NCBI RefSeq assembly: GCF_038007965.1
Contig: NZ_JBBOYD010000001.1
Coordinates: forward strand, 660,501 to 724,500
Direction: 5' to 3'
DNA length: 64,000 nucleotides
DNA from: Niallia sp. FSL W8-0635
GTDB taxonomy: Bacteria; Bacillota; Bacilli; Bacillales; Cytobacillaceae
Below are positions 2,431-25,060 of this stretch, piece after piece; the first letter of the stretch is position 1; each line of letters begins with the position of its first letter. Position numbers and translations under genes: made by a program. The notes under the pieces were generated by a model. It was not told where the DNA came from and ran no database searches. It saw nothing but the letters and a program-made list of their open reading frames with translations.

Positions 2431-3828
2431 ATGAAAGATAAACAGCAAAACACGGTGGCAAAGTTGAAGGTAGGACAAACCTTTCCATTAACGATTAAGC
2501 GTTTAGGGATAAATGGCGAAGGAGTCGGCTATTTTAAAAGACAGGTTGTATTCGTGCCAGGTGCTCTTCCTGGTGAAGAAGTGGTGGTAGAAGCAACCAA
2601 GGTTCAGCCTAAGTTTTCAGAAGGAAAGGTAAAGAAGATAAGAAAATCTTCGCCATTCCGCGTTCAAGCGCCATGTCCTTTTTACGAACAATGTGGAGGA
2701 TGTCAGCTTCAGCATTTAGACTATAATCAGCAGCTACAGGAAAAAAGAGATATCGTCATTCAATCATTAGAAAGACATACAAAACTGAAAATCGATAAAT
2801 TAGATATTCGCTCAACAATCGGCATGGAAGATCCATGGAACTATCGCAATAAAAGCCAATTCCAAGTGGGACAGCAAAAAAATGGTGCGATTATTGCAGG
2901 TCTATACGGACTTGATTCCCATCGTTTAATTCCAATTCAGAATTGTATGGTGCAGCATCCGTTGACAAACAAAGTATCAGAAGAAGTTCGTAAAATTCTA
3001 GAAGAATTCCAAATCCCAATCTATGACGAACGCAAGCAAAAAGGGATTGTTCGTACGATTGTAACGCGTGCTGGCTTTGAATCTGGAGAGGTTCAAGTTG
3101 TACTGATTACAACGCAAAAAGAAATGCCAAGAAAAAAACTAGTGATGGCCGAAATCCAAAAAAGATTACCAGAAGTGAAATCATTAGTACAAAACATAAA
3201 CGGCAACAAAACCTCCCTTATTTTTGGAGAAAAGACAATTCACTTAAGTGGGGAAGAAGTTATCCAAGAAACACTAGGAGATTTAAACTTCGAGCTGTCT
3301 GCAAGAGCGTTCTTCCAATTGAATCCTGTGCAAACAGTAAAGCTGTATGATGAAGTCAAAAAAGCAGCTGCTTTAACAGGGAAAGAAAAGATTGCCGATG
3401 CGTATTGCGGAGTCGGAACAATAGGCTTATGGCTAGCCGATGGCGCAAGTGAAGTTCGCGGGATGGATACGATTGAAGCAGCGATTACAGATGCACAAAA
3501 AAATGCAGATAGACAAGGTATCGAAAACGCAACCTATGTAACAGGTACAGCAGAACACTGGCTGCCGAAATGGGTAGAAGAAGGCTGGCGTCCAGATGTG
3601 GTTGTCGTTGACCCGCCGAGAACAGGCTGTGATCGGAAGCTATTAGATGCAATTAAAAAGGTTAAACCGAAGAAGTTTGTGTATGTTTCTTGTAATCCAT
3701 CTACTTTGGCGAAGGATATTGATTATTTGTCTAAGGATTATAAAGTAGAGTATTTGCAGCCGGTGGATATGTTTCCGCATACGGCGCATGTTGAATGTGT
3801 GTCGCAGATGGTTTTGAGGGAGAATTAA
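2431..3828 (+). CDS. rlmD: 23S rRNA (uracil-C5)-methyltransferase, RlmD/RlmCD (RumA family)
   Basis: SAM-dependent m5U methyltransferase of 23S rRNA, 465 residues. It has an N-terminal TRAM domain (about 10-70), Fe-S cysteines C82, C88 and C91 (CPFYEQCGGC) with a fourth near residue 172, a SAM motif (DAYCGVGTIG), VVDPPRTGCD, and the catalytic-cysteine motif VSCNPSTLAKD. The RBS AGGAG precedes the ATG. The gene is the target of the island: its last codons (VECVSQMVLREN) appear to be supplied by the island, while a homologous native ending lies at 25056-25091. Its stop codon overlaps the convergent recombinase stop. It should remain functional (inference). Confidence 0.95.
   Translation: MKDKQQNTVAKLKVGQTFPLTIKRLGINGEGVGYFKRQVVFVPGALPGEEVVVEATKVQPKFSEGKVKKIRKSSPFRVQAPCPFYEQCGGCQLQHLDYNQQLQEKRDIVIQSLERHTKLKIDKLDIRSTIGMEDPWNYRNKSQFQVGQQKNGAIIAGLYGLDSHRLIPIQNCMVQHPLTNKVSEEVRKILEEFQIPIYDERKQKGIVRTIVTRAGFESGEVQVVLITTQKEMPRKKLVMAEIQKRLPEVKSLVQNINGNKTSLIFGEKTIHLSGEEVIQETLGDLNFELSARAFFQLNPVQTVKLYDEVKKAAALTGKEKIADAYCGVGTIGLWLADGASEVRGMDTIEAAITDAQKNADRQGIENATYVTGTAEHWLPKWVEEGWRPDVVVVDPPRTGCDRKLLDAIKKVKPKKFVYVSCNPSTLAKDIDYLSKDYKVEYLQPVDMFPHTAHVECVSQMVLREN
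3787..3808. other. attL of the island (left junction in rlmD)
   Basis: The CATGT crossover region (3787-3791) lies inside rlmD, followed by the island-borne half-site that ends with GTCGCAGA (3801-3808). The perfect inverted partner TCTGCGAC lies at the right junction. The island half-site doubles as the last codons of rlmD. Confidence 0.7.
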
Positions 3829-5303
3829 CCAGGTGAAATTGAAAATCGATAAGTAATCATAGGAATACCGTTATTATCTACCTCAATCCGCTCAACAAAA
3901 TGATGGAGTATTTCCTCCGTTACTTCATGAAGCGGTAAAAAGCGGCTAATGGTATTTCGAAGTTTTTCAATTCGTCCTAAAAATTCATCATGTCGGAGTG
4001 AGGCTTCAAGCCCACTCCTTTTAATATTTAACTCATTTATTTGTTCTTGATTATCATCAGCAACTTCTCGATATTCTTCATGGGTTATTTGGTTTTCTGC
4101 AAGCATCTCAAGGTAGCGTTTCTTTTTTGCTTTAGAAGCTTTAATTTCATTTTCAATGTTGTTTAATATTTGAGCAACTTGCTTTTGTTTCATTTGAGCT
4201 TCTTCTGCAAGGGTATTTAAGTATTCCTTATCGTTAATAACTTGAGCCATTTTTTTAATATCAGAAAGGATTGTTTCTTTTAAATCCTTTTCTTTTATAG
4301 TTCTTTGAGTGCAAGCAATTTTTCCATGACGAGCGTAACTCCCGCAAATGTAGCCAGTTCGATTTTGCCTATACCACATACCTGTTCCGCAGTCAGAGCA
4401 ATATAGGACATTTGTAAAAAGATGCTTTTTTACCTTCGTATGATTTTTCTTGCGACTTCTCATTAGCTCTTGTACGGTATCAAAGGTTTCTTGCGAAATG
4501 ATTGCCTGGTGTGTATTTCTTACAATAATTTGGTTTTCTTCAGGAATACTGTGCCTTGACTGGGAGGTGACACTTCTTGTAGTTTCTCTTCCCTGAACTA
4601 AATCACCTGTATAATGCGGATTAGTCAGGATGGTCTTAATAGTTGAACCATGCCAATATCGACCTGCATTGCTCTTCTGTGCCACCTGAGAGGGTGTTGG
4701 GTACCCCTTTTTGGAAAGAGAACGAGCAATGGAATCGAAACCCTTTCCACTCAAATATAAATCAAATATGCTCTTAACAACTTCAGGCGTATAATCATCT
4801 GCAAGAACTAGCTTCTTATCAATTACCTTATAACCATAGGGAGCGTTTGAACCATGAAAATTTCCTCTTTTGGCATTTGTGTTTAGAGCAGCTTTGATAC
4901 GTTCAGAAGTACGTTGTGATTCCTGTTCATAGACCCAAGCATATAAGCCGAACATATGAATATTGCCCTCAAGTGAATTAATCGCATTATCAAAGGTGAT
5001 GATGTGGATATTATGCTTTTCGGCAATATCCTTAATTTCATATGAAAGCTTCCCATTCCTTGCTAGGCGCGATAGTTCCTTTGAAAGAATGACATCGAAC
5101 TTATGCTGCTTTGCGTCCTCAATCAATTGCCGGAGGTTTTCCCGCTTTTTATCCTTCGTTCCCGATTCCACATCAATATAAATACGAAACAAATCCCATC
5201 CCTTCTCCACGATTATGTTGTAAAAGAACTGCTGCTGATTTTCCAATGAGGTTTTCTGCTCTTCTTTATCTGTCGAAACCCTAATGTATACTGCACATTT
5301 CAT
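3825..5303 (-). CDS. Large serine recombinase, left-end copy (Rec1)
   Basis: Site-specific DNA recombinase, 492 residues. The N-terminal resolvase domain has the nucleophile Ser10 in YIRVSTDKEEQ and the LSKELSRLARNG motif. Next come the recombinase DNA-binding domain (APYGYKV...ILTNPHYTGDLVQ), a zinc ribbon (YCSDCGTGMW...GYICGSYARHG), and a C-terminal coiled-coil tail. The stop codon overlaps that of rlmD at the island edge, so this is the prime candidate integrase/excisionase. It closely resembles the recombinase at 17246-18730 in shared blocks (SRLARNG, NPHYTGDLVQ, GYICGSY). A hairpin encloses its RBS and a recombinase-site-like dyad lies just upstream. Confidence 0.93.
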   Translation of the reverse strand: MKCAVYIRVSTDKEEQKTSLENQQQFFYNIIVEKGWDLFRIYIDVESGTKDKKRENLRQLIEDAKQHKFDVILSKELSRLARNGKLSYEIKDIAEKHNIHIITFDNAINSLEGNIHMFGLYAWVYEQESQRTSERIKAALNTNAKRGNFHGSNAPYGYKVIDKKLVLADDYTPEVVKSIFDLYLSGKGFDSIARSLSKKGYPTPSQVAQKSNAGRYWHGSTIKTILTNPHYTGDLVQGRETTRSVTSQSRHSIPEENQIIVRNTHQAIISQETFDTVQELMRSRKKNHTKVKKHLFTNVLYCSDCGTGMWYRQNRTGYICGSYARHGKIACTQRTIKEKDLKETILSDIKKMAQVINDKEYLNTLAEEAQMKQKQVAQILNNIENEIKASKAKKKRYLEMLAENQITHEEYREVADDNQEQINELNIKRSGLEASLRHDEFLGRIEKLRNTISRFLPLHEVTEEILHHFVERIEVDNNGIPMITYRFSISPG

Positions 5304-5305
5304 TT

Positions 5306-5333
5306 ATCTCAACTCCAATCAAAATGTTGAGAT
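5306..5333 (-). promoter_or_regulatory. Hairpin/operator over the Rec1 ribosome binding site
   Basis: On the minus strand ATCTCAAC and GTTGAGAT are perfect 8-bp inverted arms. The GGAG of the RBS lies at the edge of the arm next to the start codon. As RNA it could hide the RBS; as DNA it could be an autoregulatory operator. Confidence 0.5.
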
Positions 5334-5360
5334 GTAGTAATGTTTACCTGTGAACTACTA
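5330..5360. repeat. Recombinase-site-like dyad; half shared with the right end of the island
   Basis: The minus strand reads AGGTAAACATTACTACATCT (5330-5349). This matches AGGTAAACACTACTACATCT at 25002-25021 in 19 of 20 positions, in inverted orientation. Here the sequence also forms an imperfect dyad (TAGTAATGTT...GAACTACTA, 5335-5360). At the right end only one half is present. Confidence 0.6.
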
Positions 5361-24996: not shown

Positions 24997-25001
24997 TTAA
25001 T

Positions 25002-25021
25002 AGGTAAACACTACTACATCT
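25002..25021 (+). repeat. Right-end copy of the 20-bp recombinase-promoter repeat
   Basis: AGGTAAACACTACTACATCT, 19/20 identical to the minus strand at 5330-5349. It lies 6 bp after the nuclease gene and 35 bp before the attR crossover. Together the two copies are inverted repeats near both ends of the island. Confidence 0.65.
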
Positions 25022-25035
25022 TATTAGAAAAAGTG

Positions 25036-25060
25036 TCTGCGACCTAATGTCAAGACATGT
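25036..25060. other. attR of the island (right junction)
   Basis: TCTGCGAC (25036-25043), the partner of GTCGCAGA at 3801-3808, lies 12 bases before CATGT (25056-25060). The sequence then switches to the native rlmD 3' end. On excision this half-site would rejoin the left one to give a symmetric attP of about 42 bp. Confidence 0.7.

What the first reader, a model, noticed from the sequence alone, without database searches (positions are those of the whole stretch)
3787..25060. A ~21.3-kb island in rlmD whose reconstructed attP is a symmetric serine-recombinase site
Both junctions carry CATGT followed by homologous rlmD 3' codons. Joining the right end to the left end creates a ~42-bp site in which TCTGCGAC (25036-25043) and GTCGCAGA (3801-3808) are perfect inverted arms. 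Each is the outer 8 bp of a 21-base half-site flanking the C/A step of CATGT, and TCAA/TTGA also pair within the halves. This symmetry appears only after the ends are joined, so it independently supports the element boundaries and a crossover inside CATGT. I recall that the rumA (rlmD) 3' end is a known target of serine integrases in streptococcal ICEs; here the element has no conjugation genes.
Basis: partly seen in the sequence, partly recalled or inferred. Interest (0 to 1): 0.85.

Follow-up and report, generated by a model that had tools for sequence, protein, structure and literature searches.

The report
Defence island integrated into rlmD
A 21-kb mobile DNA cassette carrying likely anti-phage genes has inserted into the end of a ribosomal-RNA methylation gene and rebuilt that end with its own sequence; related cassettes in other bacteria have docking sites that differ between branches but stay mirror-symmetric.

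Summary
The island runs from CATGT at 3787 to CATGT at 25056. Another genus carries an element with a 91%-identical integrase in its rlmD, with the same two terminal halves and different outer flanks, which fixes both ends. The left RlmD tail (HVECVSQMVLREN) travels with this integrase; none of 12 same-genus relatives has it. The mirror symmetry of the joined ends recurs: 12.7 of 21 positions over 23 hand-picked end pairs, against 3.9-6.4 at shifted registers, and the arms change together between clades. Alone, the window's dyad would not be conclusive. The likely enzyme is the serine recombinase at 3825-5303. Cargo includes TrlF, a McrBC-like cluster and three more serine recombinases; no conjugation or phage structural domain appeared in the 16 island ORFs scanned. 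Serine integrases at rumA/rlmD, three-recombinase islands (gin) and SCC-like cassettes are known. Apparently new (seven literature listings): clade-matched attP arms that double as rlmD codons, tandem arrays of such sites, and a ~20-bp repeat, unexplained, shared by the element's right end and its own integrase leader.

The parts
2431..3828 (+). rlmD (23S rRNA m5U methyltransferase); its last 13 codons read from the core onward are element-borne
   Evidence: ORF; TRAM and tRNA_U5-meth_tr domains; solved relatives SP_1029 and RumA
3787..3791 (+). attL core CATGT; predicted crossover at C|A (3787/3788)
3792..3828 (+). element-borne rlmD 3' end (HVECVSQMVLREN); left attP arm GTCGCAGA at 3801-3808
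   Evidence: same tail type beside LSR1 relatives in G142 and G024; absent from 12 relatives
3825..5303 (-). LSR1, 492-aa large serine recombinase, predicted integrase; ends tail-to-tail with rlmD (4-bp overlap)
   Evidence: Resolvase 3.1e-27, Recombinase 9.5e-26, zinc ribbon 4.8e-12
5306..5333 (-). palindrome ATCTCAAC...GTTGAGAT in the LSR1 leader, around GGAG
   Evidence: RNA fold z -1.55, weak
5330..5348 (-). leader copy of repeat M (GGTAAACATTACTACATCT); 5330-5359 in the wider inverted repeat
5520..5861 (+). YopX-domain protein, 113 aa
   Evidence: PF09643 2e-06
5926..8940 (-). TrlF-family AAA-like ATPase, 1004 aa, candidate defence gene
   Evidence: NF045780 3e-207, above cut-off; PADLOC Ppl 6.8e-25
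9269..9643 (+). 124-aa ORF, no family hit
9744..11312 (-). DDE transposase (insertion sequence inside the island)
   Evidence: PF13751, PF01609
11719..13026 (-). CoiA-N-domain protein
   Evidence: PF25164 6.5e-09; 59-67% relatives in G142, G024, G321
13719..13907 (+). 62-aa ORF before LSRa
   Evidence: no Pfam hit
13913..15361 (+). LSRa, 482-aa serine recombinase, overlaps LSRb
   Evidence: PF00239 1.4e-16
15354..16853 (+). LSRb, 499-aa serine recombinase
   Evidence: PF07508 5.5e-17, PF00239 9.1e-10
17246..18730 (+). LSRc, 494-aa serine recombinase, 41% identical to LSR1, preceded by a 45-aa ORF
20005..21201 (+). 398-aa protein, first of the McrBC-like cluster; weak hits only
   Evidence: PADLOC DruC1 3.4e-04, PDC-M26A 6.2e-04
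21198..23156 (+). McrB-like AAA ATPase
   Evidence: PADLOC PDC-M26A 8.5e-47; AAA_5 7.4e-05; McrB model 2.6e-04, below cut-off
23140..24996 (+). McrC-like protein: DUF2357 plus PD-(D/E)XK nuclease
   Evidence: PF09823 1.2e-09, PF04411 2.4e-06; PDC-M26B 2.5e-05
25003..25021 (+). right-end copy of repeat M (GGTAAACACTACTACATCT); 24992-25021 in the wider inverted repeat
25036..25055 (+). right attP half with arm TCTGCGAC (25036-25043) and TCAA
25056..25091 (+). attR core and the rlmD 3' end taken to be the displaced native one (HVECVAQLVLK)

Best explanation
A non-conjugative integrative cassette with candidate anti-phage cargo, integrated by the large serine recombinase LSR1 (3825-5303) into the 3' end of rlmD. 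LSR1 would bind the two mirror half-sites of the circular element's attP and the rlmD attB, cut at the C|A step of the His codon before the conserved V-E, and exchange strands. The element's left half encodes a replacement C-terminus including that Glu, so RlmD stays full length. Excision would need a directionality factor; ORFs of about 45-60 aa just before the integrase gene in many relatives (before LSRc in the window) are candidates. Shown by sequence: element ends, the tail carried by the element, the dyad and its change between clades, gene content. Inferred: LSR1 as the enzyme, cut position, excision, the small ORF's role, defence function.
For: LSR1 domains. G142, another genus, has LSR1 at 91% beside an rlmD end with tail HVECVSQIVLREN and right end GTCTGCGACCTACTATCAAGA|CATGT, with different outer flanks; G024 has the same tail beside LSR1 at 90% but no rlmD to its left. 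So the tail goes with the integrase. Read by eye, 24 of 30 loci from the family search (the window's own included) abut an rlmD end; of 28 new loci from the order search, 22 show core plus tail and 18 also an rlmD-like left flank. Dyad over 23 end pairs 12.7/21 against 3.9-6.4 when slid by 1-4 bases; 0 of 20,000 re-pairings as good. Rule-based second set of 10 pairs (9 new): 11.6/21 against 3.0-6.6. Arm types follow integrase clades, judged by eye.
Against: No circle, empty site or activity seen. Four serine recombinases lie in the island. Relatives' rlmD ends are split between the two copies at DNA level: 5 nearer right, 6 nearer left, 1 tie. G002, the relative with a similar tail and the window's right-flank genes, holds a second core 3.1 kb downstream, so it is not a clean empty site. 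In the second set re-pairing alone is weak (1,009 of 20,000), and its pairs range from 6 to 15 of 21. Six of 30 family loci have no rlmD on the expected side; tandem insertion is my reading for most, untested. attB shows little symmetry (5/21). Related sequences were not corrected for kinship.
Confidence: 0.86

Rival explanations
1. Composite island: an LSR1 cassette that absorbed part of a second cassette whose integrase was LSRc with partners LSRa/LSRb, which might still move an inner unit.
For: In relatives such as G180, G107, G085 and G005 the a-b pair lies beside an integrase at an att end, whereas in the window a-b-c lie mid-island. LSRc groups apart from LSR1.
Against: LSR1 with a, b and c recurs in G142, M. 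litoralis and S. aurantiacus, so the set looks stable. No other core with a short HVE tail lies in window 1-40000 on either strand.
Confidence: 0.35
2. A conjugative or mobilisable element of the rumA type that lost its transfer genes.
For: Same target gene and enzyme class (PMC4701971).
Against: No relaxase or conjugation domain in 16 island ORFs scanned, nor among the 25 listed of 57 Pfam families hit by 47 cargo ORFs of elements from five other genomes. In streptococci the att site lies inside the integrase gene; here the integrase ORF is intact.
Confidence: 0.08
3. A prophage remnant using a phage serine integrase.
For: Erysipelothrix phages also sit at rlmD (PMC12785378, passages seen); one YopX-domain gene.
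Against: No phage structural domain in the 16 island ORFs scanned.
Confidence: 0.04
4. The dyad is a chance by-product of rlmD coding sequence.
For: One arm lies in rlmD codons; 3 of 1,406 CATGT pairs in the window score as high.
Against: The non-coding right arm pairs with it at the exact register across 23 and then 10 end pairs, with different arms in different clades.
Confidence: 0.02

Closest known systems
Streptococcal ICEs integrated in rumA by a single serine integrase (PMC4701971)
   Same: Same target gene (rumA = rlmD), serine integrase at the junction, changed 3' end of the target
   Different: Those are conjugative and the exchange also alters the integrase 3' end; here no transfer genes found and the integrase ORF is intact
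gin element in gerE of Bacillus cereus (PMC5595907)
   Same: Non-phage island with restriction genes, girA-girB pair plus separate integrase girC, imperfect inverted repeat at the att site, small RDF (GirX, 42 aa)
   Different: Target gerE, excision during sporulation; sequence kinship of Gir proteins with LSRa/b/1 not tested
Staphylococcal and Enterococcus cassette chromosomes (SCC, ECC; PMC6222049)
   Same: Serine recombinases, insertion at an rRNA methyltransferase gene (rlmH), variable cargo, several att sites, inverted repeats in the circle's site
   Different: Target is rlmD; LSR1 scores far below the Ccr cut-offs
Triplets of serine integrases in streptococcal ICEs (PMC4701971)
   Same: Three serine recombinases in a row
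   Different: Targets mutT, traG, hsdM; conjugative; homology not tested

Membership tests
Large serine recombinase / serine integrase | Resolvase, Recombinase and zinc-ribbon domains | tested here: met
   matches YokA and A118 integrase chains
Large serine recombinase / serine integrase | Symmetric attP with distal motifs | tested here: met
   PMC3783163 places the ZD motif at positions 16-24 in another integrase, here the perfect arms are at 14-21
Large serine recombinase / serine integrase | attB with the distal motif shifted 5 bp inward | not tested
   only plain attB symmetry was scored, 5/21
Large serine recombinase / serine integrase | Recombination activity and RDF dependence | not testable with these tools
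   needs bench work
rumA ICE | Integration in rumA/rlmD by a serine integrase | tested here: met
   sequence only:
rumA ICE | Conjugation module | tested here: not met
   16 island ORFs
SCC/ECC cassette chromosome | CcrA, CcrB or CcrC | tested here: not met
   LSR1: 97.5-111.6 bits against cut-offs 700-900; LSRb and LSRc also below
SCC/ECC cassette chromosome | Insertion at rlmH | tested here: not met
   target is rlmD
gin element | Recombinase pair plus separate integrase, no phage genes | tested here: inconclusive
   layout similar but a fourth recombinase is present, one YopX gene, and homology was not tested
gin element | Insertion in gerE | tested here: not met
   inserted in rlmD

The most novel reading that the evidence does not exclude
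The ~20-bp repeat M, found just inside the element's right end and in the leader of its own integrase gene, and matched within elements although it differs between clades, is a shared binding site for an integrase-linked protein (the integrase or a small directionality factor). It would couple integrase expression to the state of attP, giving a serine-integrase system with a one-sided accessory element, which well-studied serine integrases do not need.
Probability: 0.35. Interest if true: 0.68.

Novelty: new variant of a known kind. Interest (0 to 1): 0.5.

Why it matters
Many natural integrases share one target yet have diverged, clade-matched attP arms: a ready set for learning how serine integrases read DNA and a source of site pairs that may not cross-react. 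It also suggests a Bacillales counterpart of cassette chromosomes, stacked in tandem and carrying anti-phage systems, at a second rRNA methyltransferase gene.

Tried and rejected
A repeat scan of the island gave no convincing inner element ends; its useful pair was I9 (repeat M). A coding role for right-end M (frame running into the rlmD tail) was considered by reading the printed sequences; in the window that frame has a stop at M. An RNA-hairpin role for the LSR1 leader palindrome is weak (14 of 200 shuffles fold as well). Rfam (window 2400-26000) and tRNA scans found nothing. Eight loci with odd left flanks were re-read without naming a second target gene. Repeat M fails in G120 and BspREN10 and is not above shuffles in G317, G337, G367 and G232. 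Ten of the 20 elements fetched for that set had no right end by the rule. The 23 pairs were chosen by hand from the core list and include pairs without their own intact integrase. Relatives as judges of the native rlmD end: first read by eye as favouring the right copy; the count (5 right, 6 left, 1 tie) does not bear that out, and confidence was lowered from 0.88 to 0.86 for it. In one search several loci were printed in the wrong orientation; one search replaces it.
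Full report
Observation. The joined site pairs at 13 of 21 positions, against 5, 9 and 5 for attL, attR and attB. Alone this is modest: 347 of 300,000 random pairs do as well, and 3 of 1,406 ordered CATGT pairs in the window do.

Which rlmD end is native. All 12 other genomes held for the genus have the orthologue. None ends in HVECVSQMVLREN. 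Two of the 12 (G003, G007) carry LSR relatives at the junction; G002 has no LSR match in 20 kb and keeps the MerR and CPBP genes of the window's right flank about 4.7 kb downstream, but has a second core 3.1 kb on. The other nine show one core and no LSR match in the stretch fetched (20 kb, 9.3 kb for G010). At protein level G008 (HVECVAQLVLK) equals the right copy and G010 and G002 are near it; at DNA level over 36 bases 5 are nearer the right copy, 6 the left, 1 tied. So relatives alone do not decide. The decision rests on the tail travelling with the integrase: HVECVSQIVLREN stands beside LSR1 relatives of 90-91% in G142 and G024, whose left flanks differ.

Independent elements. Family search: 38 of 193 genomes at E <= 1e-110 (own genome counted); 24 of the 30 loci returned abut rlmD by eye. 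Order search: 39 of 397 at E <= 1e-115, including three genomes seen before; of 28 new loci 22 show core plus tail within the stretch examined, 18 with an rlmD-like left flank. G007 and G005 carry closely related integrases in two different rlmD paralogues. The own genome's other paralogue shows one core and no LSR match in 20 kb.

The dyad across elements. 23 hand-picked end pairs average 12.7 of 21 at the C|A register, 3.9-6.4 when slid by 1-4 bases, and 0 of 20,000 re-pairings are as good; single pairs range from 8 to 17. A second set by a fixed rule gave 10 pairs from 20 elements, 9 of them new: 11.6 of 21, 3.0-6.6 when slid; re-pairing was weaker, 1,009 of 20,000. Kinship is not corrected for. 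Arm types by clade (by eye): TCTGC(G/C)A in the window's clade and the G007/G208 group, GTTGC...ACACTC in the G107 group, ACTGTGAAA in G045, AGCA(C/T)TC where tails read HVECC. The left arm is also rlmD coding sequence, so it may be under two constraints (inference).

Target chemistry. The crossover precedes the Glu of conserved H-V-E. In one solved SP_1029 chain that Glu reads Gln, which fits a catalytic residue; that it is the general base (E424 of E. coli RumA) is recalled. If so, the element supplies the catalytic Glu.

Gene content. LSR1, YopX protein, TrlF ATPase, a DDE transposase, a CoiA-N protein, LSRa, LSRb, LSRc and a McrBC-like cluster. LSR1 with a, b and c recurs in G142, M. litoralis and S. 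aurantiacus (c cut by the end of the stretch in the last two), and LSR1 with CoiA in G142, G024 and G321. Cargo elsewhere: of 55 ORFs of 150 aa or more in elements of five genomes (G142, G007, G005, G130, G412) I scanned 47, leaving out seven recombinases and, by oversight, one other ORF. Among the 25 listed of 482 PADLOC families are GajA, GajB, LeoA and LeoBC with two ORFs each and PbeA and AriA with three; among the 25 listed of 57 Pfam families are ResIII (4 ORFs), N6_Mtase, AIPR and UvrD-helicase (2 each) and type ISP, type I specificity and Mrr-like domains (1 each).

Arrays. Three or more cores in a row occur in G180, G003, G107, a Clostridiales MAG, Neobacillus DY30 and Anaeromonas. 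An rlmD gene was matched at one end in the first four; in DY30 none was in view and in Anaeromonas only an rlmD-like flank.

Repeat M. GGTAAACA(C/T)TACTACATCT lies at 25003-25021 and, inverted, at 5330-5348 upstream of LSR1. In 15 elements with a called right end and an integrase, the right end and the own leader share a stretch better than all 300 shuffles in 11 and within 1-2 of 300 in two more; the other two fail. Own pairs average 31.9, other pairings 21.8, 0 of 20,000 re-pairings as good. Second set: 6 of 10 beat all shuffles, own 28.0 against 23.6, 119 of 20,000. In many relatives leader M is the 3' end of a 50-60-aa ORF overlapping the integrase start; LSR1 in the window has none by the rule used, LSRc has a 45-aa one ending 9 bases before it. 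A shared binding site is my best guess, not shown.

Literature. PMC4701971 (passages): rumA single integrases; triplets. PMC5595907 (passages): gin, GirC, 42-aa GirX. [quoted passage not shown] PMC3783163 (passages): attP and attB recognition, no auxiliary DNA needed. PMC12785378 (passages): rlmD beside prophages in Erysipelothrix and other Gram-positives. PMC6814731 (passages): three serine recombinases in one island, read there as three sequential elements. The listings showed no title or abstract start describing a Bacillales rlmD cassette family or repeat M; the library lacks most subscription papers and all preprints.

Noticed in passing
window 5330-5359 and 24992-25021: Inverted ~20-30-bp repeat M shared by the integrase leader and the element's right end, matched within most elements examined.
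   Followed up: yes
window 13212 (-), 16861 (+), 16893 (+): TGGAAAA(T/C)CGAA occurs once before LSRa in inverted orientation and twice just after LSRb.
   Followed up: no
L037 3778-4218 and L045 3327-3770: A short ~146-aa ORF resembling only the N-terminal 137 residues of LSR1 lies between LSR1 and LSRb; also matched in G050, G187 and G123.
   Followed up: partly
L129 (Neobacillus DY30), reverse-strand coordinates 2568-2624 and 18743-18799: Two pairs of att cores only 56 bp apart.
   Followed up: no
L033 (G002), oriented with rlmD forward: 1712 and 4810: Two rlmD-tail cores 3.1 kb apart with no serine recombinase match in the 20 kb fetched; possibly an integrase-less cassette.
   Followed up: no
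L072 and L073: LSR1 relatives whose 3' end faces what looks like the right-type half of the att site, i.e. integrase at the opposite end.
   Followed up: no
L141 and L155: Genomes of two families share the same non-rlmD left flank next to the integrase tail; origin not identified.
   Followed up: partly
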